Position numbers and translations under genes: made by a program
Part shown: positions 1,794-18,855 of the stretch, in pieces
How the letters are laid out: each line of letters begins with the position of its first letter
Position numbering within the stretch: position 1 is the first letter of the stretch
DNA from: a virus
Strand: one strand, 5' to 3'
IMG/VR virus record: IMGVR_UViG_3300009494_000025
Coordinates: 1 to 20,716 of that record
DNA: 20,716 bases
The notes under the pieces: model-generated
The model's database searches: none
The model's input: only the letters and a program-made list of their open reading frames with translations
What the model was told of the DNA's origin: nothing

Positions 1794-2515
1794 TGGGTAA
1801 ACATTTTGATTTTAGCGGCTTTTATTATAGATCTACTGACACGACTACGATATATAGTAGTGGTACTAAATTATATAATAAATTAAAAAATTGTATAAAA
1901 CAGGCCACCCGTAGTATACTGATAGTGTCTCCGTACATCAGTATAAGTGATGATATATGTAATCTGTTGCGCGATGCGGCTGACAGAGGAATACTTATAA
2001 TTATATACATTCGTACGTCTGATAAACATTTTAAACGGGGTGAGTGGTTAGAATCCATCAAGCTTATTAATAGTATAGAAGGAGTTAACATTTTTGCTGT
2101 TGACGGATTACATGCTAAACTATACATATTTGATTCCGAAACTAGCATTGTGGGTTCTGTGAATCTAATTGAACATTCTTTAGAATTTGGTGGAGAATTA
2201 GCGTTGTATTTAGAGCAATATAGTATTATAACTGGTTTAATTGAATATGTGAACACTCAAATCATACCACACGCACAACCAATTACGGAATTAGTAAGCT
2301 CCATTACAATACAAGAACAACGTACATTACCGCTTAAGGATATAATATTTACATTTGGTGTACATAAAAATACTAAATTACGGCAAATCCCAAATTCTTA
2401 CTTGGAGTGGTGTGTGGCTGAACAGGTTAAAGTTATAATACGTGGTAAACCTGCGTGGCGATTAGCTCAACAAGAACTAAAGTATAGAACAAGGAATAAA
2501 CTAATCATAACATGA
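1793..2515 (+). CDS. Phospholipase D-superfamily nuclease with ExoX-C-like tail
   Basis: One clear HKD motif is visible: H107-x-K109-x4-D114-x6-GS-x-N124, the signature of the phospholipase D superfamily. A single copy in a 240-residue protein is the pattern of the nuclease branch (Nuc and BfiI type), where two subunits build one active site. The N-terminal beta strand SILIVSPYIS fits the fold. After about residue 180, FTFGVHKNTKLRQIPNSYL and the WCVAEQ...AWRLAQQELKYR segment resemble the small ExoX C-terminal / DUF3820-like module found on phage DNA-processing enzymes. The gene is coupled on both sides (1-base and 4-base overlaps). A role in phage recombination or host DNA breakdown is inferred. 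Confidence 0.8.
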   Translation: MGKHFDFSGFYYRSTDTTTIYSSGTKLYNKLKNCIKQATRSILIVSPYISISDDICNLLRDAADRGILIIIYIRTSDKHFKRGEWLESIKLINSIEGVNIFAVDGLHAKLYIFDSETSIVGSVNLIEHSLEFGGELALYLEQYSIITGLIEYVNTQIIPHAQPITELVSSITIQEQRTLPLKDIIFTFGVHKNTKLRQIPNSYLEWCVAEQVKVIIRGKPAWRLAQQELKYRTRNKLIIT

Positions 2516-3132
2516 TGCGTTATGTTGTAATTGGTACGAACATGCTACAAGGAACCATAATACTAGTAACACGTACAGGACGATTGTTAAAATCACATCC
2601 GCCAGAACATGTAGCTAGTGCTAGGCGATTTTGTGATAAATACTGGTATGTATTTGCATTAAATAATGTTATGGCAGTACAATTAGTACAAGCTAAAACA
2701 GATGGACAACGAGACGTTAAATACGGTATTTTAACAGATTCAGATCGTCTACGTTATTTACAGTCTGGATATCCGAACGTTAAAAAATCTGGATATATTG
2801 ATATAGATAATTCTGATACGTATGTTAAGTGCCATGTACCTGGGTGTAATTATAAGGCTCGATGTTTGATATCCCATTTGAAAGCTGTACACAGTATGAC
2901 AGGAACTGAGTATAAACGTCAATACGGTGGAGAATTATTCTGTAAAGAATCTTTAACTGCTATGAGTGCTGCCGGTAAAACTGGTGCCAGTCATGATTTT
3001 AATCGAATTGTACAAAAAGTACGAATTCTTAGTAGAGAGCAACGAGAACGGATATTACATAACATCGATAAAGAAATAGAGCGCGGAGACTGGCGAGAAA
3101 AATACAAGGAGCCAAGAGAAGATGACACCTAA
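2512..3132 (+). CDS. Ros/MucR-like zinc-finger protein, paralogue 1
   Basis: The 206-residue protein carries a Ros/MucR-type finger: C107-x4-C112 and H122-x4-H127, followed by MTGTEYKRQYGG, the usual helix after this finger (H-x-x-T-x-x-EY-x-x-x-Y-G). The C-terminal stretch GKTGASHDFNRIVQKV is shared with the minus-strand paralogue at 18322-18855 (GKTGAANDWNHFCRLF) and, more loosely, with 16107-16508. About 100 N-terminal residues are unique to this copy and resemble no domain I recognise. Ros/MucR proteins bind AT-rich DNA and act as regulators or H-NS-like chromatin proteins. The finger has C-x4-C where the two paralogues have C-x2-C. It overlaps the PLD gene by ATGA. Confidence 0.8.
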   Translation: MMRYVVIGTNMLQGTIILVTRTGRLLKSHPPEHVASARRFCDKYWYVFALNNVMAVQLVQAKTDGQRDVKYGILTDSDRLRYLQSGYPNVKKSGYIDIDNSDTYVKCHVPGCNYKARCLISHLKAVHSMTGTEYKRQYGGELFCKESLTAMSAAGKTGASHDFNRIVQKVRILSREQRERILHNIDKEIERGDWREKYKEPREDDT

Positions 3133-5015: not shown

Positions 5016-5450
5016 ATGGCACAAAAGTCTAAGGGTCGCGTTATTGATCTTTCGAGTGTAGACAGTCTAGAAGCATTACCCGATGGTCGTTATTCGGTTA
5101 TTGTATCTGAGGTTGAAGAGAGAATTAGTGACACTTCTCAACAGCCCTATCTTGCTTGGACATTTGAAGTTGTAGCTGGAGAATATAAAGGGCGTAAGCT
5201 CTGGAATAATACTTCTCTACAGCCTCATGCACTTTGGAAACTCAAAGAGACCTTTGAAGCTCTTGGTATGGACACTACCAAGAAGATTACTTTTGTGGAG
5301 AAGAATCTGTGTGGTCTTCGTTGCGATGTTATATTAGGCCAACGTGAATGGGAAGGCCAGACACGTAACGAAGTTAAACAAGTTCTTCCTCTACAAGGTG
5401 GTACTTCCACCGGTCGTAAAGGTGGTAAGAAGAAGAAGTCGGGGTTTTAA
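5016..5450 (+). CDS. DUF669-type ssDNA-binding protein candidate
   Basis: The 144-residue protein matches the phage DUF669 pattern: LPDGRYSVIVSEVEERIS near the start, AWTFEVVAGEYKGRKLWNN in the middle, then ALWKLKETFEALGM, and a flexible Gly/Lys tail (GRKGGKKKKSGF). DUF669 genes sit beside Sak4-type ATPases and Cas4-like nucleases in phage recombination modules and are thought to bind single-stranded DNA with an OB-like fold. The ribosome binding site AAAAGGAGG is the best in this region, and codons (CTT, TCT, GAG, AAG) differ from AT-rich neighbours, both suggesting high expression as expected for an SSB. The basic tail, instead of the acidic one of cellular SSBs, is notable. Confidence 0.78.
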   Translation: MAQKSKGRVIDLSSVDSLEALPDGRYSVIVSEVEERISDTSQQPYLAWTFEVVAGEYKGRKLWNNTSLQPHALWKLKETFEALGMDTTKKITFVEKNLCGLRCDVILGQREWEGQTRNEVKQVLPLQGGTSTGRKGGKKKKSGF

Positions 5451-5800
5451 TGCCTTGTCTTTGTAATTATGCTCATTGTAATAAAACTCGTTGTGACACT
5501 GATTGTCGCACATGCCAGTATTATGTAGCTGGTAGGGGTAGTAGAGCATACGATTGTGGGCTACCGGCGGATGAGGATTGTATAGACCTCTTTCGTCGGT
5601 GCCCCGAATGTATTTGGCATATCCCCGATCGTAGATTCGTTGAGGATGATGATCCACGTACTAAACAAAAACGTTATCGTGATAATCACCCCCGTAGAGA
5701 AAACAAACGTAAAAAACTATGGCGTAATAAACTAAAAAATAAGCAAAAATTAGCTGAAAAAGCTAGATTACGCAGGGCACAAAAATGGATCAAGAATTAG
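5450..5800 (+). CDS. Cys-rich, basic-tailed zinc-binding protein
   Basis: The first 54 residues hold ten cysteines (C3, C5, C10, C15, C19, C22, C36, C44, C51, C54), enough for two zinc clusters. The rest (about residues 66-116) is a strongly basic helical tail. The layout suggests a nucleic-acid-binding accessory protein. It is coupled to the DUF669 gene (TAATG) and overlaps the primase-helicase start by 16 bases, so a replication role is plausible. No named family is recognised. Confidence 0.7.
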   Translation: MPCLCNYAHCNKTRCDTDCRTCQYYVAGRGSRAYDCGLPADEDCIDLFRRCPECIWHIPDRRFVEDDDPRTKQKRYRDNHPRRENKRKKLWRNKLKNKQKLAEKARLRRAQKWIKN

Positions 5801-8616
5801 ATTATATAAAGATATACAGTCGTTGGTTTCCAGATATTAGTTCTTTGACTCCAAATGATTTAAATAACGTATTAGTTATATGCCCTTTCCCAGACCACGA
5901 TGATACAGAACCTTCATTGTCTATTAATATATACACTGGATTATGGAAATGTTTTGGGTGTGATTCGGCAGGCGATATATTTACATTTATAATGAAAATA
6001 GAAAATGTAGACTTTCGTCGGGCAGAAAATATAGCTAGAAGTATGTCATTACCTTTTATTCCACCGGCAGAAATAACTAGATGGAAACGTGCTTTACTTA
6101 AATCGACGAAATGGATGTTATTTTTACGAGAACAACGAGGATTAACAAAAAGTACTATTAATGAATATGATTTAGGCTGGGACGGTAGTCGCATTACTAT
6201 TCCCGTATATGATATTGATGGTAATTGTGTTAACATACGTAGGTATAGCAAAACTGCATCAGGTAAAAATAAAGTATTAAATTACAAACAAGGTTATGGT
6301 AGCCCAATACGTATTTTTGGGTTATCAGTTCTAAAGCACGATACTATATGGGTTGTTGAAGGTGAATTAGATTGTATTTTAGCTAATCAATTAGGTTTAT
6401 ACGCGGTAACATCTACAGGTGGCGCATTAGCGTGGAATCCTGATTGGGCAGATAAATTTCAGGATAAAACAATTTGTATTTGTTATGATGTAGATAAGTC
6501 AGGTAAAGTAGGGGCTGAAAGAACAGCTAGACATCTTGCTACTACAGCTACCGAAGTTAAAATTATCGCTTTACCAATGGTAGATCAAGTTGGGGCGGAT
6601 GTAACAGATTATATAGTAGCAAACGGTGCTACCTTGGAAGATTTTTACACTTTAAGTAAACAAACTACTATATGGGAATTACCTACAGTGGCGGATAATG
6701 CAGAAAGTACAGATAAGGATGAAACTGTTTATGAAGTACATTTAAGTCAGGCTACTCAAGCTAGATATTTTAAAAAGCGAGTAAGTGTAACAGGTATCGT
6801 AGCTGGAAAAACTTTAGCGCCATATATGGTACCTAAAAAGGTAGAATTTCAATGTTCAGCGGATATGGATGCATGTATTAATTGTCCTATGATACATGCT
6901 GCCGGGGTTGCCAAAACGATGGTAGTTAGCAGTAAAACTAAATGGTTGTTAGACTTAATTGGTGTAGCAGATAACACTCAACGCAATACATTATTAGCTA
7001 TGGTGGGTGCTGGACGGTGTAAACATTTAAGTATGAAAGTAATGTCTATGCAGAATGTAGAAGAAATATCAGTCATTCCTGATTTAGACTTTACTACTAG
7101 TACCGAAGAATATTGTATTAGGCGTTGTTTCTTTGTTGGTAATGGTTTACGCAGTAATCAACCATATGTATTTACTGGATTATCATTACCAGACCCTAAA
7201 AATCAGATAGCTACTTTATTATTTAATAAAGCTGATAATACTCAGGGAGATATATTTTCCTTTAAAATGACACCTGAGATATTTAAACAATTGCGTATAT
7301 TTCAACCTAAGAAACACCAATCTATTACAAATAAGTTTAAACATATATACACAGATTTAAGCGCTAATGTTACTGGTATTGTTGGGCGACATGATCTTAT
7401 TACAGCAGCTGATTTAGCGTGGCATTCAGCATTATCCTTTATCTTTCAAAAGCGAAAAGTAATGCGCGGATGGGTAGAAGTTTTAATCATTGGGGATCCT
7501 AGAACCGGTAAAACTGAGACGGTTTCTAACTTACAACAACACTATCGTTTAGGCGAATTTCTAACAGGGGAGAATACATCATATGCAGGACTTATTGGTG
7601 GATTACAACAAAACAATAAAGTATGGCAAATTACTTGGGGAAAACTCCCGCTTAATAATGGCAGATTGGTTGCTATCGATGAAATTAGCGCCCTTAGCGT
7701 TGAGGAAATTGGCCAAATGTCTGGGGTACGATCTACAGGCATCGCTGAAATCACTAAAATTCAAACTGAACGTACTTTCGCTAGAACAAGAGCTATCTGG
7801 ATGTCTAATCCGCGGTCAGCCAGAACCCTTGCTACATATACTTATGGGGTGTTAGCAGTCAAAGAACTCATTGGACGACCTGAAGATATTGCTAGATTTG
7901 ACTTGGCGATGTCGGTGGCTAATAATGAAGTCGATGTGGAACTTATTAATACAGAAAATATACCAAAAGTAAAGCATACATACACTAGTGAATTATGTCG
8001 TACATTATTATTATGGGCGTGGTCTAGAACGCATGAACAAATTAATTTTACTTCAGATGCAGTATCGGCTATTTTAAGAGCGGCTATAGATATGGGTAAT
8101 ACTTATTCACCTAAAATTCCATTTGTAGAGGCCGCAGATCAACGGATTAAATTAGCTAGATTAGCTACAGCTGCGGCTATTAGAACTTTTTCTACTGAGG
8201 ATGGAGATACAGTATTAGTTACTAAAGATCATGTTCAATTTATAGTAGAATATTTAACAGCTGTGTATTCTAAACCGTCATTTGGATATATGCAGTTTAG
8301 TGAAATGGAAAATCAGGATGATCGGGCATTAGAACAAAATAAAGACGAAATTGAAACTTTTTTAACTGAACAACGAGAATTTGCACATCTATTAATGCGT
8401 ACGCATCAATTCAGAGCAAGAGAATTGGGAGAGATGTTAAATGTCGATGGATTTGAGATACAAAACTATGTTAGTTTCTTAATGAAATTTGGGTTATTGA
8501 TTAGAACGCCTAATGGTTATATTAAAAGTCCAGCATTAATTCAGAAATTACATGAATATTTACCGCATATACCTATAGAGAATAAACCGCAGAAAAGAAC
8601 TAAAAGCCGTTTCTAA
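5785..8616 (+). CDS. Primase-helicase: CHC2 zinc finger, TOPRIM and MCM-like AAA+ domain
   Basis: The 943-residue protein starts with a CHC2 primase zinc finger (C33, H38, C56, C59 in CPFPDH and WKCFGC). A TOPRIM domain follows, with VVEGELD (E192) and CYDVDKSG (D235, D237). A linker with cysteines (about 350-370) may be the OB/zinc part of an MCM-like N-terminus. The helicase core has Walker A GDPRTGKTE (570-578), Walker B LVAIDEIS (DE at 632-633), a sensor asparagine in WMSNPRSART and an arginine-finger-like DIARFDL. These resemble MCM AAA+ proteins rather than DnaB/gp4 RecA-fold helicases. The C-terminus (from about 870) looks like a winged helix. It should prime and unwind at the phage fork with the polymerase downstream. 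Confidence 0.88.
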   Translation: MDQELDYIKIYSRWFPDISSLTPNDLNNVLVICPFPDHDDTEPSLSINIYTGLWKCFGCDSAGDIFTFIMKIENVDFRRAENIARSMSLPFIPPAEITRWKRALLKSTKWMLFLREQRGLTKSTINEYDLGWDGSRITIPVYDIDGNCVNIRRYSKTASGKNKVLNYKQGYGSPIRIFGLSVLKHDTIWVVEGELDCILANQLGLYAVTSTGGALAWNPDWADKFQDKTICICYDVDKSGKVGAERTARHLATTATEVKIIALPMVDQVGADVTDYIVANGATLEDFYTLSKQTTIWELPTVADNAESTDKDETVYEVHLSQATQARYFKKRVSVTGIVAGKTLAPYMVPKKVEFQCSADMDACINCPMIHAAGVAKTMVVSSKTKWLLDLIGVADNTQRNTLLAMVGAGRCKHLSMKVMSMQNVEEISVIPDLDFTTSTEEYCIRRCFFVGNGLRSNQPYVFTGLSLPDPKNQIATLLFNKADNTQGDIFSFKMTPEIFKQLRIFQPKKHQSITNKFKHIYTDLSANVTGIVGRHDLITAADLAWHSALSFIFQKRKVMRGWVEVLIIGDPRTGKTETVSNLQQHYRLGEFLTGENTSYAGLIGGLQQNNKVWQITWGKLPLNNGRLVAIDEISALSVEEIGQMSGVRSTGIAEITKIQTERTFARTRAIWMSNPRSARTLATYTYGVLAVKELIGRPEDIARFDLAMSVANNEVDVELINTENIPKVKHTYTSELCRTLLLWAWSRTHEQINFTSDAVSAILRAAIDMGNTYSPKIPFVEAADQRIKLARLATAAAIRTFSTEDGDTVLVTKDHVQFIVEYLTAVYSKPSFGYMQFSEMENQDDRALEQNKDEIETFLTEQREFAHLLMRTHQFRARELGEMLNVDGFEIQNYVSFLMKFGLLIRTPNGYIKSPALIQKLHEYLPHIPIENKPQKRTKSRF

Positions 8617-8631
8617 TGTTAAAGGCTAAAG
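8593..8631 (+). repeat. 39-bp direct repeat, copy 1
   Basis: Identical over 39 bases to 8896-8934. This copy spans the last seven codons and the stop of the primase-helicase gene, and leads into the ribosome binding site (GGAG) of the next small gene. Confidence 0.97.
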
Positions 8632-8641
8632 GAGAAATACC

Positions 8642-8895: not shown

Positions 8896-8934
8896 AAAAG
8901 AACTAAAAGCCGTTTCTAATGTTAAAGGCTAAAG
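8896..8934 (+). repeat. 39-bp direct repeat, copy 2
   Basis: Exact copy of 8593-8631, but here outside any gene. It ends one base before the -35 box of the promoter at 8936, so promoter and small gene together look like an insertion or duplication next to the primase-helicase 3' end. Confidence 0.97.
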
Positions 8935-9012: not shown

Positions 9013-9321
9013 ATGGCTTATTTTACAGTATTTACAGCTTTAGCAGGGGCTTTTTTAACTGCTCAAAAAACTAATCGTATGAGGCGACATGGTTTTATAG
9101 TTTGGATTTATACTAATGGTTTTTGGATTTGGTATAACTGGGGCGATTGGGCAATGGTAGCGCAATTCAGTTTATTTTTCTTCTTGTGTTTTTTAGGTAT
9201 ATGGAACAATCAAGATGTTATCGGTGGACTTATTAAAAACGTCAAACACGGAGCACCATATCCAACACGCCCATATAGTAAAGAGGAACTTGATGAAAAT
9301 CTCAGAATCAATAAACCATGA
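9013..9321 (+). CDS. Small multi-pass membrane protein, PnuC-like half
   Basis: The 102-residue protein has two to three hydrophobic spans (about residues 1-18, 26-42, 47-65), rich in Trp and Phe (FIVWIYTNGFWIWYNWGDW). This pattern of a short span, a basic loop and Trp-rich spans recalls small phage membrane proteins related to one repeat of PnuC or semiSWEET transporters; that similarity is by eye only. The tail is polar and overlaps the polymerase start by 29 bases. AAAAGGATAGTATA precedes the ATG, and it is the first gene after the strong promoter. Confidence 0.65.
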   Translation: MAYFTVFTALAGAFLTAQKTNRMRRHGFIVWIYTNGFWIWYNWGDWAMVAQFSLFFFLCFLGIWNNQDVIGGLIKNVKHGAPYPTRPYSKEELDENLRINKP

Positions 9322-11218
9322 AGTCCCTACACTGGCACAGTTAATTCACGGCATTGATGAAGATGCTGAAATGCGAGAACAATTTTTTATGGGTGACGTA
9401 ATTAACATTGAATTATTAGAACCGGCACATAAAAAAGATCGGGTATATTTAGACCTTGAAACTACAGGTCTAGAGCCGTTCTTTGGTGATACTATACTTG
9501 GTATAGCATTGGGCGTGACTGATGTTTATGGTACTAGTTTCCATTCACGTTATTATCCATTTAGACACGATAATGGAAAAAATTTGAGATTAACCCATCA
9601 GCATCAAGTCATGTCTCATCTATTAACTTTAGACGAAACAGTAACGTGGGTATTCCACAATGCACGATTTGATTTACACTTTTTACGACGCATATTCCCT
9701 AAATTTGGTAAACGCATTTGGGATACATTAATGGCAGCCCATATAGCAAATGAGCACCATAAAAGTTTTGGTTTAAAGGCTTTAGGCGTAGAATACTTCG
9801 GGGAAAGTGCTACCGAAGAAGAAAGAGCTTTAGAGTTATTAGCCAGTAAAGGTAACATGCGTACACTTACTCCAGAAGAAGTGGCTCCTTATGCGTGTAA
9901 AGACGTTGAACTTACTTACTTATTAGATGATCAGTTCAATAAAGAACTAGCAGAACAAGGACTCACTGATTACGCACGTCGCCAAATGTCCTTGGTGGAT
10001 TTAGCTGAACAATTAGAAATGAAAGGATTACCACTCAAGATTAAACGTATGGAAAGGTTTGATAAAGAGGCACGAAAAGAAAAAATTCGATTACAGGCAA
10101 AAATTGCACGTATTACTGGTATTAGTGATTTTAATCCTAATTCTCCTGTACAAATTAAAAAGTTTACCGGGTGGAAAAGTACGGCTCAAGACATAGTGGA
10201 TGAAAGAATAGCTTTGGGTCAAGTGGAACCGGAATTTGTGGATTTTTTTGAAACACTTTTAGAATTCCGACACTGGACTAAGGTTAGTGGTACGTATTAC
10301 GCTAAATTCCGAGAACGTATGGATAAAGAAGAACGTGTACATCCCAATCTTAATCCAACCGGAACTGGAACTGGTAGATTTAGTTGTAGTAAGCCTAATA
10401 TGCAGTCTCTTCCTAGAGCGCGTTCAGCCGATGAAAAAATATATAAGGTACGTCAAACTATCGGGCCACGTAAAGATAATATATTAGTATTTATTGATTA
10501 TAAACAAGCTGAAATGCGTATTGCGGCCCATTTTGCAGAAGAAGAAACTGTACTAAAACTATTATGTGATGGACATGATTTACATTCATGGGTAGCTGAA
10601 GAAATATTTGGATCAGATGAACCATATATGCGCTGGATCGCTAAACGTATTAATTTTGGTACGGTATATGGTATTGGTGCTAAAGCATTATCAATTGATA
10701 AAGATTTACGTAAAATGTTGCGAGTAGTTCCTGATTTTACATGGAATCGTCAAATGGCATCTAAATTTTTAGCGATGTATCATAGAACCTTTCCGGGTTT
10801 TGGGCGATTACTTGCTATAGCACAAAATACAGCTAAACGTAGAGGACATATTTATTTATTTACTGGACGTTATAGACGGTATCCAGATAAAAGTGATCGG
10901 GCTACTCGTAAAGCCAGCAGTAATTTAGTACAAGGTACTGTAGCCGAAATTGTTAACGAAGCTATGTTACGTTGTGATATAGTATGTAAAAATGCCAAAA
11001 TTGAGCCGGGATTAATCTTCCAAGTACATGATGAACTTGTTTTCGAAATGCCTCGTAATCAAGCAATTAATATTGTACCAACATTGGTGGAACAGTGTGA
11101 AGATTGGGATTTTACTGTACCAATGCCTGTGGATGTGGCGGTTGGGATAGACAGTTGGGGTAAAAAGATAGACTTTGACAAGTTTGTTAAAAGTGAACAA
11201 AGGCGGATTAAAAAATGA
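9293..11218 (+). CDS. Family A DNA polymerase with 3'-5' exonuclease (DpoZ candidate)
   Basis: The 641-residue protein has all three exonuclease motifs: DLETTG (D54, E56), HNARFD and YACKD. The polymerase motifs are complete: TGRFSCSKPNMQSLPR, motif A DYKQAEMR (catalytic D402), motif B RWIAKRINFGTVYG and motif C VHDELVFE (D580, E581). There is no 5'-nuclease domain, as expected for phage family A enzymes. Motif B has Phe at the sugar-selection position. The start at 9293 is chosen because AAGAGGAACTTG precedes it; an upstream ATG at 9215 lies deep inside the previous gene. Its place just before the MazG-like, PurZ and HD genes matches the DpoZ polymerases of aminoadenine phages, but no residue visible here proves a preference for diaminopurine. 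Confidence 0.93.
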   Translation: MKISESINHEVPTLAQLIHGIDEDAEMREQFFMGDVINIELLEPAHKKDRVYLDLETTGLEPFFGDTILGIALGVTDVYGTSFHSRYYPFRHDNGKNLRLTHQHQVMSHLLTLDETVTWVFHNARFDLHFLRRIFPKFGKRIWDTLMAAHIANEHHKSFGLKALGVEYFGESATEEERALELLASKGNMRTLTPEEVAPYACKDVELTYLLDDQFNKELAEQGLTDYARRQMSLVDLAEQLEMKGLPLKIKRMERFDKEARKEKIRLQAKIARITGISDFNPNSPVQIKKFTGWKSTAQDIVDERIALGQVEPEFVDFFETLLEFRHWTKVSGTYYAKFRERMDKEERVHPNLNPTGTGTGRFSCSKPNMQSLPRARSADEKIYKVRQTIGPRKDNILVFIDYKQAEMRIAAHFAEEETVLKLLCDGHDLHSWVAEEIFGSDEPYMRWIAKRINFGTVYGIGAKALSIDKDLRKMLRVVPDFTWNRQMASKFLAMYHRTFPGFGRLLAIAQNTAKRRGHIYLFTGRYRRYPDKSDRATRKASSNLVQGTVAEIVNEAMLRCDIVCKNAKIEPGLIFQVHDELVFEMPRNQAINIVPTLVEQCEDWDFTVPMPVDVAVGIDSWGKKIDFDKFVKSEQRRIKK

Positions 11219-11442
11219 ACATAGGAATATGGGTAATTTTGGTGGTTGTAAGCTATATTTTAGGGTATCTATGTGGGCGTAAAGTGCATCAGATATATGC
11301 GTATTATCAAGGACGTGCAGATACTTTAGATAAGTGGAGTGATGTTTTACTGGATTGGCATCATGTTCAGGATATTCCGGATCCAAGAATTAACGATCCT
11401 GATATATTTTATGTAAAAAATCATCCACATATGCGCAGTTAG
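11215..11442 (+). CDS. Small membrane-anchored protein (75 aa)
   Basis: One N-terminal hydrophobic span (about residues 4-20, IWVILVVVSYILGYLCG) is followed by a basic, then polar cytoplasmic-type tail with HH and DPRINDPD motifs. The start overlaps the polymerase stop by ATGA. No family is recognised. Similar tiny anchored proteins in this window (16761, 17049, 17893) show this phage carries many of them. Confidence 0.65.
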   Translation: MNIGIWVILVVVSYILGYLCGRKVHQIYAYYQGRADTLDKWSDVLLDWHHVQDIPDPRINDPDIFYVKNHPHMRS

Positions 11443-11459
11443 AAAAAGGAACGATCGTT

Positions 11460-11876
11460 ATGAGATGGTATCGAATTAGTATAGCTATTGAACGCCAAGT
11501 CGGAGATGTTATGGCGACTGATGTAATTAATATGGATTCTATAGAGCCTGTACAATGGCAATGTGCGTTTGATGCATCTGGACAGACTTTATGGTTTTTT
11601 AAGCGAATGATTAGTTTATATCGTCAATTCATTCGTAAGAATGCCGACTATGCCACAGATCTTTCAAATTGGTATGAAGGATTCATGGAAAGTGGACTTC
11701 AAGGCATATATAATCGTACCACTGACAAGATGAATCGCATTAAAAATCATCTTCGTGGACAAAAGCTACATAATGAAAGTTTTTCAGATTCCTGTGGTGA
11801 TGCGGCAACTTATTTATTAATGTTAGACGAAGCCAATAATGAAGATGTACCTATACAAGGTACTAACTGGAGTTAA
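11460..11876 (+). CDS. MazG-like / DUF1599-type nucleotide pyrophosphohydrolase (MazZ candidate)
   Basis: The 138-residue helical protein carries the pattern of DUF1599 (Nmad1) and related MazG-like enzymes: RKNADYATDLSNW in the middle, then TTDKMNRIKNHL and a last acidic helix NESFSDSCGDAATYLLML, equivalent to the ES-x-x-DT-x-x-D-x-x-x-Y signature. MazG-like enzymes release pyrophosphate from (d)NTPs through clustered acidic residues binding Mg2+. In aminoadenine phages the MazZ enzyme turns dGTP into dGMP, the PurZ substrate; PurZ lies 0.4 kb downstream, which makes this gene the natural candidate. AAAAGGAACG precedes the ATG. The family call is by motif only, the dGTP role is inferred, and it may differ from MazZ of cyanophage S-2L. 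Confidence 0.62.
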   Translation: MRWYRISIAIERQVGDVMATDVINMDSIEPVQWQCAFDASGQTLWFFKRMISLYRQFIRKNADYATDLSNWYEGFMESGLQGIYNRTTDKMNRIKNHLRGQKLHNESFSDSCGDAATYLLMLDEANNEDVPIQGTNWS

Positions 11877-11879
11877 CTG

Positions 11880-12056
11880 GTGGTTAGAACACGAAAACCA
11901 ATTCCGTGTGCGATGTGTAATAAAATTTTTACACCTACTAAAGCTGCACAGTATCATTGTACACGATGTGATGTATTTCCTAAGAAAACTAAGTTTAATA
12001 GTTTTTATCGAAAACGGCTGGGGAAAAAAGGAGTAGAATTTCAATTTTTACATTAA
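11880..12056 (+). CDS. Short zinc-ribbon protein with GTG start (58 aa)
   Basis: A GTG codon seven bases after GGAG opens a 58-codon frame whose product has a classic zinc ribbon, C10-x2-C13 and C27-x2-C30 (PCAMCNKIF, HCTRCDVF), and a Lys/Arg-rich tail. The gene fills the gap between two well-supported genes, starting 4 bases after one stop and ending 12 bases before the next ATG. It is easily missed because of the GTG start. A nucleic-acid-binding role is inferred from the ribbon and basic tail. Confidence 0.75.
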   Translation: MVRTRKPIPCAMCNKIFTPTKAAQYHCTRCDVFPKKTKFNSFYRKRLGKKGVEFQFLH

Positions 12057-12067
12057 GGAGTTAACAG

Positions 12068-12289
12068 ATGGCAGCTATAGGAAAATACCGACGTACTTGT
12101 TTATCATGTCCTATGTGGCAAATGGATGAATCCGTTTCACCACATACGTGGGGCATATGTAAACGTATTGGAGAGCCTACTCAAGGTGATGGGAGTTGTA
12201 CACATCATCCGTGGAAAGATACTCCCAATTCCCCCAAAATAGCATATTCAAGGAGAAAGAAATCATGCAACGTGGACGTATCAATTTAA
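12068..12289 (+). CDS. Cys-rich small protein overlapping purZ (73 aa)
   Basis: TTAAGGAGTTAACAG precedes the ATG. Four cysteines, C11-x2-C14, C31 and C44, with Trp after them (CLSCPMW, GICKR, CTHHPW), form a pattern seen in small phage zinc-binding proteins. The last 25 bases overlap purZ, so the two genes are coupled. The function is unknown; the conserved neighbourhood in other purZ phages would show whether it belongs to the Z pathway. Confidence 0.65.
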   Translation: MAAIGKYRRTCLSCPMWQMDESVSPHTWGICKRIGEPTQGDGSCTHHPWKDTPNSPKIAYSRRKKSCNVDVSI

Positions 12290-13401
12290 CAATGGGATTG
12301 CAGTTTGGCAGTGAGGGCAAAGGATTACTTAGTGGTCACTTAGCTCTATTAGCTGCTGTAGATGTTGCAGTATGTGACTTTGGTCCTAATACTGGACATA
12401 CTTTTGTTGATGTTCGGGATGAAAAAACTATAGTTACACAATTACCGATGGCTGTAGTTAATCCCATGACCCAATTAGTAATAAGTAGTGGTGCCATTAT
12501 TCACCCACCAACATTACTTAAAGAAATTGAAGAAAATAATTGTGGACATCGGGTTACTATTGATCCCAATGCTGCTATAGTAACCGAAGAATGTCGGCAA
12601 TGGGAACAAAAACACTTGCCAAGAATTAGTTCTACCAAGAAAGGGGCCGGAGCAGCATTAGCATGGAAAGTTATGCGTCATCCAGATGCAAAGATTGCCG
12701 GAATGATTGATGAGCTTAAACCCTTTTTAGGTGAAGTTACTCCGTTGTTATGGAAAGCATGTTTGTCTAACAAAATGATTTTAGGGGAGCAAGGACAAGG
12801 ATTTTGGTTATCGAGAGATCACAGCAATATGTGGCCTTATTGCACTGGTCGCAATGTTACATCTATGGCATTTATGGACGGTTGTGGGCTTCCTAGTACA
12901 TTATTAGGCAATGTTTATGGGGCCCTGCGTACGTTTCCCATTCGTGTAGGCAATGATAAAGATAGTGATGGTACAGACATCGGATATAGCGGTAATGCCT
13001 TTGAAGGATCTAAGGAATTATCATGGGAAGATATTACCGTACAAAGTCGTTCTTCAAAGCCTATTCAAGAGACTACTACTGTTACTGGGAAAATACGACG
13101 AGTATTTACATTTTCGATGGATCAAGTAATACGTGCCATTAATATCAACGGAGTTACTGACATCTTTGTAAATTTCTTAAATTACTTAGATGATAAGGAT
13201 AGTAATGCCAGAGATATTAAAACATTGTCATCACCATCTTTACAATTCTTAGGTACTCTACAGATGACATTAAATCAACAATGCGTACGTATTGATGGGC
13301 GACCGTTACCCGTTATTACATTTGGTGGGGTAGGCCCGACGCATAAACACGTTATTGACATCAGCCCACAACATCTAGCGTTACATCTCCAGACACGATA
13401 A
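12265..13401 (+). CDS. purZ: PurZ: adenylosuccinate synthetase homologue for 2-aminoadenine
   Basis: The 378-residue protein belongs to the adenylosuccinate synthetase family: GLQFGSEGKG (11-20) is the P-loop-like motif, FGPNTGHT (39-46) holds the catalytic His45, GEQGQG and YCTGRNVTS follow, then RTFPIRVGN and TVTGKIRRVFTFS. PurA enzymes have GDEGKG; here Ser16 replaces the catalytic Asp. That Asp-to-Ser change marks PurZ enzymes, which use dGMP rather than IMP and join it to aspartate with ATP, giving the precursor of 2-amino-dAMP. The length (shorter than the roughly 430 residues of PurA) and the segments around YCTGRN and RRVFTFS also match phage PurZ. The start at 12265 follows AAGGAGAAAGAAATC. 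I am confident of PurZ rather than PurA; enzymatic activity is inferred. Confidence 0.92.
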   Translation: MQRGRINLTMGLQFGSEGKGLLSGHLALLAAVDVAVCDFGPNTGHTFVDVRDEKTIVTQLPMAVVNPMTQLVISSGAIIHPPTLLKEIEENNCGHRVTIDPNAAIVTEECRQWEQKHLPRISSTKKGAGAALAWKVMRHPDAKIAGMIDELKPFLGEVTPLLWKACLSNKMILGEQGQGFWLSRDHSNMWPYCTGRNVTSMAFMDGCGLPSTLLGNVYGALRTFPIRVGNDKDSDGTDIGYSGNAFEGSKELSWEDITVQSRSSKPIQETTTVTGKIRRVFTFSMDQVIRAININGVTDIFVNFLNYLDDKDSNARDIKTLSSPSLQFLGTLQMTLNQQCVRIDGRPLPVITFGGVGPTHKHVIDISPQHLALHLQTR

Positions 13402-13422
13402 AGATCGGATAAGTGTGATAAA

Positions 13423-14019
13423 ATGAATATCGGTCAAAAAAGTTTATTATTTGGGGCCCACCAGTTAATCCTACATTCGATACTGGTGGGCGTGGCATGG
13501 CGTAGATTATACTTACGCTGGCCTTTACCGTGGGAATGGGCATGTATTTTTATACATGACATTGGTTATTGGCATACTAATGATTTTACTAGTTTGGAGG
13601 CTCGAAATCACCCATTTTTGGGTGCACGAATAGCTAGACGATGGTTTGGTACTAAAGGTTTTGATTTAGTAGTTGGACATTCATCAAGGGCCGCTAAAAT
13701 CCATAAATTACCAATATCTAAAATGTGTGCAGCGGATAAAATGGCTAGTTTATTAATGCCACGACGGTTATATTTATGGTTAACACATAACACAGGGGAA
13801 TTACAACAATATCGAATATGGGCTGCTACCAATGGGTATACTTGGTATAACGATTTACATTTTTCGGGTGCACACAATTGGTATTATGGGTGTCTAATAC
13901 CTGAGTGTATAGCTAAAGCTAAAAAACATCTAGTATATATTAATATTATTCAATTTAATACAGCCCATGAGTACATACAAGGGGTGGCTAAACATGTATA
14001 CGCCGGAAGACATTGCTAA
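13423..14019 (+). CDS. HD-domain phosphohydrolase (DatZ candidate)
   Basis: The 198-residue protein has an HD metal site: H13 or H18, H45-D46 (FIHDIGYW), H63 (RNHPFLGARIARRWFG), H86 (VVGHSSRAAK) and D105 (CAADKMA). Two extra histidines between the HD pair and the last Asp suggest a two-metal site, closer to the YqeK and HD-GYP type than to the simpler arrangement reported for the S-2L dATPase. In purZ phages an HD enzyme (DatZ) next to purZ strips the triphosphate from dATP, so adenine is kept out of the DNA. Position 21 bases after purZ suggests this role, but substrate cannot be read from the sequence. The ribosome binding site is weak. Confidence 0.8.
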   Translation: MNIGQKSLLFGAHQLILHSILVGVAWRRLYLRWPLPWEWACIFIHDIGYWHTNDFTSLEARNHPFLGARIARRWFGTKGFDLVVGHSSRAAKIHKLPISKMCAADKMASLLMPRRLYLWLTHNTGELQQYRIWAATNGYTWYNDLHFSGAHNWYYGCLIPECIAKAKKHLVYINIIQFNTAHEYIQGVAKHVYAGRHC

Positions 14020-14263
14020 AGAATTACCGTCGTCGCTTAAACGCTTGGCAGATTTACCGGAGTTTAAACGTTTTGTAATTCGTTTAAATGATTTTATTGA
14101 TAACACCAATGATGATTTTGGTATATACGGTGTATCTATGTTATTTATGGCGGGACTTTTATTACATAATCAAGCCGAAGAAGAGCTTTATTGTAGTGAA
14201 TTAGCAACAATTAGTGTTACTGATCTGTTAGAAGAAGGTGATTTCGATGAAGATTATGATTAA
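13994..14263 (+). CDS. Hypothetical acidic protein (89 aa)
   Basis: Starts at 13994, where AAGGGGTGGCTAAAC precedes the ATG, rather than at the in-frame ATG at 13967, which lacks a ribosome binding site. It overlaps the HD gene by 26 bases and the next gene by 17. The protein is helical, with a short hydrophobic stretch (YGVSMLFMAGLLL) and an acidic tail (LLEEGDFDEDYD). No family is recognised. Confidence 0.65.
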   Translation: MYTPEDIAKELPSSLKRLADLPEFKRFVIRLNDFIDNTNDDFGIYGVSMLFMAGLLLHNQAEEELYCSELATISVTDLLEEGDFDEDYD

Positions 14264-14612
14264 TTTTATTCAAGAGCAAGATGAAACCAATCAGCAAGTT
14301 ATCTCCATGCTTCAAGCTTTGTTCGCCGTTGGCCTAAATTTAGGGCGTGAAACTGTAGATAACGATTTACATTTATTCCAGCTTAATGAATTCCGTTATT
14401 GTGGGCCGCATAGATTTATATCAGATTATGAAACACCATCACAACAACAGCATACATTTACGGAAAAAGTACACGTGTTATCCTGTCCGTTATGTGGTGC
14501 AGAAGTGCTAATTACTGATCATGAATACGCACGCGGGACTATTGTTACATGTAAATGTGAGTTACACTTCCGGTACGATGCTGGATTTAAATGGATATTG
14601 GTGTCATTATGA
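14247..14612 (+). CDS. Hypothetical zinc-ribbon protein (121 aa)
   Basis: Start chosen at 14247 with GAAGGTGATTTCG before it; a GTG at 14238 in frame is less likely. The N-terminal half is helical; the C-terminal half has a zinc ribbon with C80-x2-C83 and C102-x-C104 (SCPLCGAEV, VTCKCELHF). Ends in an ATGA overlap with the resolvase gene, so probably co-translated with it. The function is unknown, but the position between Z-pathway and recombination genes suggests DNA metabolism. Confidence 0.68.
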   Translation: MKIMINFIQEQDETNQQVISMLQALFAVGLNLGRETVDNDLHLFQLNEFRYCGPHRFISDYETPSQQQHTFTEKVHVLSCPLCGAEVLITDHEYARGTIVTCKCELHFRYDAGFKWILVSL

Positions 14613-15103: not shown

Positions 15104-15955
15104 ATGGCGAGATTACGAAGTCCAATAACGTGCTTTGGTGGTAAAAGTCGAATGGCAACTAGATTAATATCTTACTTTCCAGAACACAAGACTTATGTAG
15201 AAGTGTTTGGTGGCGGGGGTTCGGTACTCTTTGCTAAAGAGCCATCATTAGCAGATATTTATAACGATATTGATAGCACATTAGTGTCCTTTTTTAGGGT
15301 GTTAAGGGACGAAGAACAGTTTAAGGAATTTCATAAACTTGTAGAATTAACACCGTATTCACGTGAAGAATTTTACTTTTGTCGGGACCATTGGAAAGAC
15401 ACCCAAGATATGGTTACAAGAGTATTCCGATGGTTTGTGGTAGCCAGAATGAGTTTTGCGGGGGAAGTAGGCGGTTCTTGGAGTCATTCGGTAACAACAT
15501 CACGCCGTGGGATGTCTAAGGCAGTATCGGCATGGCTTTCGATAGTTGAGATGTTACCAGAAATACATGAAAGACTATCGAAGGTACAAATAGAACATCA
15601 AGATTTTCGAAGTTTAATTAAAGCATATGATAGAGTACAAACGTTTTTTTATTGTGATCCACCTTATTTATTAGAGACAAGACGTAGTGGTGGGTATGAT
15701 CATGAAATGTCAGACGCGGATCACATTGATTTATTGACGATTCTCAAACAAGTAAAAGGAATGGTATTAATTAGTGGGTATCCATCTGAACTATACTCTA
15801 AGATACTTGATGGTTGGGATTATAAAGAATGGGATAGAGTATGTAGCGCAGCGGGAAATACGGTAGGAACTGGAATATTGGGAGAAGGATCAGGAAAAGA
15901 GAAACAATCACGAATAGAAGCAGTATGGGCAAATTATACGCTGCCTAAAGATTGA
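15104..15955 (+). CDS. D12-class DNA N6-adenine methyltransferase (Dam-like)
   Basis: The 283-residue enzyme has the complete D12/Dam layout: N-terminal SPITCFGGKSRMA, S-adenosylmethionine loop EVFGGGGSVLFA (motif I, about 33-44), YNDID (53-57) and catalytic DPPY (185-188). The family transfers methyl from S-adenosylmethionine to N6 of adenine, often in GATC. In a phage it usually protects against restriction. Next to a Z-DNA gene set this is odd, because a fully substituted genome would have no adenine for it. It may act on 2-aminoadenine, on residual adenine, or on host DNA. The ribosome binding site is weak (AAAGGA about 18 bases upstream). Confidence 0.9.
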   Translation: MARLRSPITCFGGKSRMATRLISYFPEHKTYVEVFGGGGSVLFAKEPSLADIYNDIDSTLVSFFRVLRDEEQFKEFHKLVELTPYSREEFYFCRDHWKDTQDMVTRVFRWFVVARMSFAGEVGGSWSHSVTTSRRGMSKAVSAWLSIVEMLPEIHERLSKVQIEHQDFRSLIKAYDRVQTFFYCDPPYLLETRRSGGYDHEMSDADHIDLLTILKQVKGMVLISGYPSELYSKILDGWDYKEWDRVCSAAGNTVGTGILGEGSGKEKQSRIEAVWANYTLPKD

Positions 15956-16106: not shown

Positions 16107-16508
16107 ATGGCACGTAAGAAATCCAAGGGGAAAGCCCCCACCCCGAAGCCCCCGACTAAGGCGGCTGCACCTAAGGCCCCTAAGGCCAAGAAGAAAAAGC
16201 AACTTGATCCGAATCTTCCAGTAGTCAAGTGTGTGATCTGCGGTCACGAGGCTCGGTGTCTAACCAGCCATCTCAAACATGAACATGACATGAAGGGAGC
16301 CGAGTACAAAGCGAAGTACGATAACGCTCCCGTGTTTGCCCCAGATATCTTGGAGAATCTCAAGAATCAGGGCAAGGACAGTTCCAGCAATCAGTGGAAC
16401 GGCATGATGAAATTACTCAAACATGCCGATGAACCCACTCGCAACGACATCATTGAGATGTTGGAAGAGGTCACTGGTATGACTATGGATGAGGCCATGA
16501 GTGCCTGA
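16107..16508 (+). CDS. Ros/MucR-like zinc-finger protein with basic tail, paralogue 2
   Basis: The first 37 residues are almost entirely Lys, Pro and Ala, like a histone H1 tail. Then comes a Ros/MucR finger, C42-x2-C45 with H55-x4-H60 (KCVICGHEARCLTSHLKHEH), and the MKGAEYKAKY helix. A C-terminal segment (APVFAPDILENLKNQGK onward) is shared with the minus-strand paralogue. The gene has a consensus promoter and GC-ending codons unlike its neighbours, which suggests strong expression or a foreign origin. Members bind AT-rich DNA as repressors or H-NS-like proteins; a high-abundance genome-binding role is inferred. Confidence 0.85.
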   Translation: MARKKSKGKAPTPKPPTKAAAPKAPKAKKKKQLDPNLPVVKCVICGHEARCLTSHLKHEHDMKGAEYKAKYDNAPVFAPDILENLKNQGKDSSSNQWNGMMKLLKHADEPTRNDIIEMLEEVTGMTMDEAMSA

Positions 16509-18321: not shown

Positions 18322-18855
18322 CTATTGGACGGGTTGGTCTAACACTCCCTCTTTCACTTGAAGAAGCGTAAAACCGGTTTCTTTTTCGAGGGTCTTAATG
18401 GTGGCCTTGCGTTCTTCTTCACCGGCCCAGTTAAAGAGACGACAGAAGTGATTCCAGTCGTTGGCTGCCCCGGTTTTCCCTGAGTTTTTAAAGTTTTCCA
18501 ATAGATCAGGGGCGAAAACGGGGGCACCGTTGTAGGCGGCCTTGTACTCGGCCCCCTTCATGCTGTGTGCGTTCTTCAAGTGAGTAGTTAGGCATCGGGC
18601 CTCGTGTCCACAGATCTCGCACTTGACTAATGGTAAACCGTCGTTCCGCTTGGCGGCTCTTCGGTCTCTCTTGCGGGTGGCTTTGGTGCCGGTCTTGGAA
18701 GCGGCTACTGCCTTCTTCATTTCGGTGGCTGAGACTACATCTGCCAGAGTAGTCTCAGGGGCCGGTTCTGATCCCGGAATATCTTTATTACTCCGAGGGC
18801 GAGAAGGTGTCGGCTTTGCCTTTTTCTTTGATGAACGAATTTTTGTATCTGTCAT
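18322..18855 (-). CDS. Ros/MucR-like zinc-finger protein with long basic tail, paralogue 3
   Basis: The 177-residue protein has a Lys/Arg/Pro-rich N-terminal tail (about residues 5-24), a second basic stretch (RKRDRRAAKR) and then the finger C79-x2-C82, H92-x4-H97 (KCEICGHEARCLTTHLKNAH) with MKGAEYKAAY. The C-terminal part (APVFAPDLLENFKNSGKTG and onward) closely matches the copy at 16107-16508. It has its own consensus promoter, nearly identical to that of the plus-strand copy, and a strong terminator, so it is a self-contained unit. CAGGAGACCGACC precedes the ATG. Confidence 0.87.
   Translation of the reverse strand: MTDTKIRSSKKKAKPTPSRPRSNKDIPGSEPAPETTLADVVSATEMKKAVAASKTGTKATRKRDRRAAKRNDGLPLVKCEICGHEARCLTTHLKNAHSMKGAEYKAAYNGAPVFAPDLLENFKNSGKTGAANDWNHFCRLFNWAGEEERKATIKTLEKETGFTLLQVKEGVLDQPVQ

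What the first reader, a model, noticed from the sequence alone, without database searches (positions are those of the whole stretch)
9293..14019. A complete candidate 2-aminoadenine (Z) DNA pathway in one block
Within 4.7 kb lie a family A polymerase, a MazG/DUF1599-like enzyme, PurZ and an HD phosphohydrolase. Known aminoadenine phages encode the same four activities (DpoZ, MazZ, PurZ, DatZ). The PurZ call is strong from sequence; the other three roles follow from family and position. If right, virion DNA has diaminopurine in place of adenine, with three hydrogen bonds to thymine and resistance to many restriction enzymes.
Basis: partly seen in the sequence, partly recalled or inferred. Interest (0 to 1): 0.92.

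Follow-up and report, generated by a model that had tools for sequence, protein, structure and literature searches.

The report
PurZ phage with a mismatched helper set
This viral fragment carries a convincing gene for the enzyme that makes the alternative DNA letter 2-aminoadenine ("Z"), but the three genes beside it are not the standard Z helper enzymes; they look like different enzymes filling the same places, so a Z genome is likely but unproven.

Summary
PurZ (12265-13401) is firm: Ser for PurA Asp13, Asn for the GTP-reading Asp333, a match to phiVC8 PurZ at the other positions checked, and a place in the Ser13 clade (100/100). It falls outside the classical PurZ subclade (99/97), whose members mostly carry DatZ, MazZ and DpoZ-2.

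The polymerase is PolA with an exonuclease domain but keeps the motif-B Tyr that both DpoZ clades replace with Phe. The "MazG" is DUF1599, with no detectable relation to MazZ or DUF5664. The HD protein is not YfbR-like DatZ: its family is uncharacterised and mostly lies in phages without PurZ. That family is, however, near PurZ in three other viral contigs, none with DatZ.

None of 20 non-classical viral PurZ records plus vB_BpsS-140 has DatZ in the sequence held; both positive controls matched.

Most likely this is a Z-DNA phage of a deep PurZ lineage that fills the dATP-removal, dGMP-supply and polymerase places with different proteins. A fragment cannot show that DatZ, MazZ or DpoZ are absent elsewhere.

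The parts
12265..13401 (+). purZ: (2-amino)adenylosuccinate synthetase, 378 aa, GSEGKG P-loop
9293..11218 (+). family A DNA polymerase with 3'-5' exonuclease domain, 641 aa; motif B RWIAKRINFGTVYGIG (Tyr kept)
11460..11876 (+). DUF1599 / Nmad1-like small protein, 138 aa; positional candidate for dGTP pyrophosphohydrolase
13423..14019 (+). HD-domain protein, 198 aa, H18-H45D46-H63-H86-D105, non-DatZ family; positional candidate for dATP hydrolase
5016..5450 (+). DUF669 protein; its family also precedes PolA-PurZ-HD in L017 and L047
15104..15955 (+). D12-class N6-adenine DNA methyltransferase (DPPY), 283 aa; its target N6 is present in Z as well as A

Best explanation
The block is a 2-aminoadenine (Z) synthesis module of a phage from a deep-branching PurZ lineage. 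PurZ joins aspartate to dGMP using ATP; host PurB and kinases finish dZTP (inferred from characterised PurZ systems). The dGMP-supply place is filled by a DUF1599 protein and the dATP-removal place by an HD protein of a non-DatZ family, and the DNA is copied by a PolA that lacks the known DpoZ signature, so A is excluded mainly by depleting dATP rather than by the polymerase, as proposed for S-2L. Supported by sequence: PurZ identity and lineage, PolA motif B, the HD family and its recurrence near PurZ. Inferred: all substrate specificities and the Z content of the DNA.
For: PurZ residues: Ser at Asp13, Asn at Asp333, TTVT, Lys at Arg303, as in phiVC8 PurZ. Ser13 clade 100/100, broad PurZ clade 100/92, outside the classical 62-row clade 99/97. 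Across PurZ loci where a motif-B residue could be read, every DatZ-bearing locus has Phe (57 of 57) while loci without DatZ have 13 Tyr and 6 Phe (Fisher p 2e-10, rows not independent by descent); the window has Tyr. No DatZ in 20 non-classical viral PurZ records (three pairs of them near-identical) or vB_BpsS-140, most searched at 30-185 kb, with both positive controls matching. HD family near PurZ in L017, L027 and L047, in 0 of 15 classical PurZ records. L017 and L047 share DUF669, PolA, PurZ and HD in the same order and carry DUF5664 (dATP/dGTP diphosphohydrolase) between PurZ and HD. Known Z clusters run PolA-PurZ-MazZ-DatZ.
Against: No activity is shown for the HD or DUF1599 family. Most HD relatives lie in records with no PurZ (24 of 24 searched), and all 80 DUF1599 loci fetched lack PurZ nearby. 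Fold searches gave no significant match for either protein and profile comparison with DatZ, MazZ and DUF5664 found no relation. An N6-adenine methylase in the same fragment would fit A-containing DNA more simply. The window is a fragment, so standard DatZ/MazZ/DpoZ could lie outside it.
Confidence: 0.55

Rival explanations
1. Standard Z phage: the missing DatZ, MazZ and/or DpoZ lie outside the 20.7-kb fragment, and the DUF1599 and HD genes are incidental neighbours.
For: The record is a linear fragment; the HD and DUF1599 families are mostly found in phages without PurZ.
Against: No other non-classical PurZ record searched carries DatZ, and in known Z phages the helpers sit next to purZ; the fragment's PolA is not DpoZ-2.
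Confidence: 0.2
2. Partial or mixed A/Z genome: PurZ raises dZTP, but an unselective polymerase and no true dATPase leave substantial adenine, which the adenine methylase modifies.
For: Motif-B Tyr kept; D12 adenine methylase 15104-15955; MT-A70 beside PurZ in L047.
Against: HD recurs near PurZ as a candidate dATPase; N6 is also present in Z, so a methylase does not prove A; motif B is not a proven determinant of selectivity (PMC8599892).
Confidence: 0.15
3. The Ser13 protein makes another purine nucleotide and the DNA is normal; Ser13 PurA-like proteins also occur in bacterial and archaeal genomes, some without phage genes near them in the stretch read.
For: Ser13 proteins in Paenibacillus, Heliobacterium, Acidobacteriota and DPANN archaeal genomes.
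Against: The window protein has Asn at Asp333 and groups with viral PurZ, while the two such genomic proteins checked at that position (L136, L140) keep Asp and most genomic ones group apart; Heliobacterium is the exception.
Confidence: 0.1

Closest known systems
Classical PurZ cluster of phiVC8, SH-Ab 15497 and S-2L (PurZ + DatZ + MazZ, with DpoZ-2 or PrimPol)
   Same: PurZ with the same diagnostic residues; a block of polymerase, purZ, a small protein and an HD protein
   Different: PurZ outside the classical subclade; polymerase motif-B Tyr; DUF1599 instead of MazZ; HD protein not YfbR-like
PurZ0 cluster of Arthrobacter/Gordonia phages (PurZ0, DpoZ-1, DutZ/DmtZ, DUF5664), PMC12884076
   Same: Different accessory enzymes around a PurZ-type core; the window PolA falls in a 7-row clade with DpoZ-1 (99/97)
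   Different: PurZ0 groups outside the window's PurZ clade; no dUTPase or DUF5664 seen in this fragment; Tyr not Phe in motif B
Bacillus phage vB_BpsS-140 (top-ranked annotated PurZ hit, 34.9% identity)
   Same: Deep PurZ lineage, GSEGKG, no DatZ in its 55-kb record
   Different: No DUF1599, PolA or HD homologue found near its PurZ

Membership tests
PurZ | Catalytic Asp13 of PurA replaced (Ser) | tested here: met
   QFGSEGKG
PurZ | Asn/Gln at the guanine-reading Asp333, TTVT in place of GATT | tested here: met
   NFLNY and ETTTVT
PurZ | Groups apart from Asp13 PurA | tested here: met
   100/100; archaeal Asp-type short PurA not included in the tree
PurZ | Uses dGMP, Asp and ATP | not testable with these tools
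   needs enzyme assay
Classical PurZ subclade | Inside the DatZ/DpoZ-2-linked clade | tested here: not met
   window outside the 62-row clade (99/97)
[quoted passage not shown]
DpoZ | Motif-B Tyr to Phe, shared by both DpoZ clades (PMC8599892) | tested here: not met
   NFGTVYG
DpoZ | NCBIfam DpoZ model cut-offs | tested here: not met
   170.3 vs 500 and 72.7 vs 350 bits
DpoZ-2 | Falls in DpoZ-2 clade | tested here: not met
DpoZ-1 | Falls in DpoZ-1 clade | tested here: inconclusive
   same 7-row clade (99/97) with polymerases not linked to PurZ; grouping with DpoZ-1 alone not rejected, p-AU 0.316
DatZ | YfbR-like (PF12917) HD family | tested here: not met
   no hit for P0004; phiVC8 and S-2L DatZ hit it; hhalign probability 0.3%
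DatZ | dATP-specific triphosphohydrolase | not testable with these tools
   needs enzyme assay
MazZ / DUF550 / DUF5664 | Detectable homology | tested here: not met
   no hit for P0002; hhalign
DUF1599 (Nmad1) | Homology to DUF1599 proteins | tested here: met
   P0002 itself has no Pfam hit; its relatives score 33.7-35.9 bits over the cut-off of 25

The most novel reading that the evidence does not exclude
A third kind of Z-DNA module in which none of the known helper families is used: a Tyr-type PolA copies the DNA, a new HD family removes dATP, and a DUF1599 protein supplies dGMP; possibly the phage also methylates 2-aminoadenine at N6.
Probability: 0.25. Interest if true: 0.65.

Novelty: new variant of a known kind. 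Interest (0 to 1): 0.5.

Why it matters
Published Z phages fall into two sets of helper genes (PurZ with DatZ/MazZ/DpoZ-2, or PurZ0 with DutZ/DmtZ/DpoZ-1; PMC12884076). This fragment and about twenty other metagenomic records have PurZ without DatZ, pointing to further ways of excluding adenine and naming two uncharacterised families (this HD family, DUF1599) as testable candidates. If confirmed, it would show that a Z genome can be made with a polymerase lacking the signature shared by the known Z-selective ones.

Tried and rejected
Naming the HD gene DatZ: rejected. Naming the DUF1599 gene MazZ: rejected as a family call. Naming the polymerase DpoZ: rejected on motif B and model cut-offs; relation to DpoZ-1 left open. 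AlphaFold models: HD core confident (mean pLDDT 78.6) but no significant PDB match, YfbR only at E 9.3; DUF1599 model poor (58.1), with MazG-like pyrophosphatases (YpjD, dCTPase, RS21-C6) among its insignificant hits. First single-protein viral-contig scans with P0003 and P0004 found nothing; alignment queries worked. Megablast of the window against the phage collection: no match. The HD tree has long branches meeting at the window, so no conclusion was drawn from its branching.

Full report
The window is a 20,716-base linear virus record from IMG/VR. Nothing in the phage collection matches the window at the DNA level.

PurZ. The 378-aa protein at 12265-13401 matches adenylosuccinate synthetases (E 1e-30), the PHROG of aminoadenine-type synthetases (6.8e-52) and, best of all PDB entries, S-2L PurZ (3.8e-38). 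At the positions checked it reads as phiVC8 PurZ: Ser at Asp13, TTVT where PurA has GATT, Lys at Arg303, Asn at Asp333. In a tree of 104 sequences the Ser13 proteins separate from Asp13 PurA with 100/100 support; the window lies in an 80-row clade (100/92) but outside the 62-row classical PurZ clade (99/97), among deep branches whose order is poorly resolved.

Helpers in other PurZ phages. I built profiles of known helpers and scanned 80 IMG/VR PurZ loci, with reference phages. DatZ was detected in 65 of 94 PurZ loci. Where a motif-B residue could be read, DatZ-bearing loci all have Phe (57 of 57) and loci without DatZ have 13 Tyr and 6 Phe (p 2e-10; related sequences inflate this). The window has Tyr. 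Searching the whole records of 20 non-classical viral PurZ contigs plus vB_BpsS-140 for DatZ found none, while two classical controls matched; these records may be incomplete, and three pairs of them are near-identical. Near PurZ in some of them are dUTPase, DUF5664 or nucleotide-kinase genes.

Polymerase. P0001 has polymerase and exonuclease domains and motif B RWIAKRINFGTVYGIG. Both DpoZ clades carry Phe at the Tyr position, though the authors do not regard any single residue as explaining Z selectivity (PMC8599892). In the tree the window polymerase lies with L017 and L047 (PurZ-linked), DpoZ-1 and two phage polymerases not linked to PurZ in the stretch read (99/97), and outside DpoZ-2; a clade with DpoZ-1 alone is neither supported nor rejected.

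DUF1599. P0002 resembles small proteins of Streptococcus and Lactococcus phages that score as DUF1599. None of 80 DUF1599 loci has PurZ in the stretch held. No relation to MazZ or DUF5664 was detected.

HD protein. P0004 is related to an HD protein of a Manatee Spring podovirus with no PurZ and to 36 IMG/VR loci. Of those 36, three (L017, L027, L047) also encode PurZ; a rough binomial estimate for three or more by chance is 6e-6, using an assumed background. HD is absent from 15 classical PurZ records, and PurZ is absent from 24 HD records (that search had no positive control inside it). The family keeps H-HD-H-H-D, a richer metal-ligand set than the H34-H66-D67-D119 reported for S-2L DatZ (PMC8065100).

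Conclusion. The sequence evidence makes PurZ activity likely and a Z genome plausible. The better description is a deep PurZ lineage whose helper places are filled by different families; their activities are inferred from position and, for the HD protein, recurrence. Papers used: PMC12884076, PMC8065100, PMC8599892, PMC8342488.

Noticed in passing
window 15104-15955; L047:9459-10001: N6-adenine DNA methyltransferases in or beside PurZ modules (D12 class in the window, MT-A70 in L047); if the DNA is Z, the product would be N6-methyl-2-aminoadenine. DPPY-type ORFs also occur in L096 and L126.
   Followed up: partly
L136, L137, L139, L140, L141, L142, L143, L145: Ser13 PurA-like genes in bacterial and archaeal genomes with no polymerase, DatZ or HD profile hit nearby; two DPANN genomes searched gave PurA-family matches at that one place only.
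   Followed up: partly
window 2512-3132, 16107-16508, 18322-18855: Three proteins with ROS/MucR-like zinc-finger stretches, one on the opposite strand.
   Followed up: no
window 5785-8616: Primase-helicase with CHC2 zinc finger, Toprim and an MCM-like P-loop domain.
   Followed up: no
window 14247-14612: Weak match to restriction alleviation protein Lar (E 0.00055, below cut-off).
   Followed up: no
window about 8602-8632 and 8904-8934: The sequence aaaagccgtttctaatgttaaaggctaaag appears twice, about 300 bases apart.
   Followed up: no
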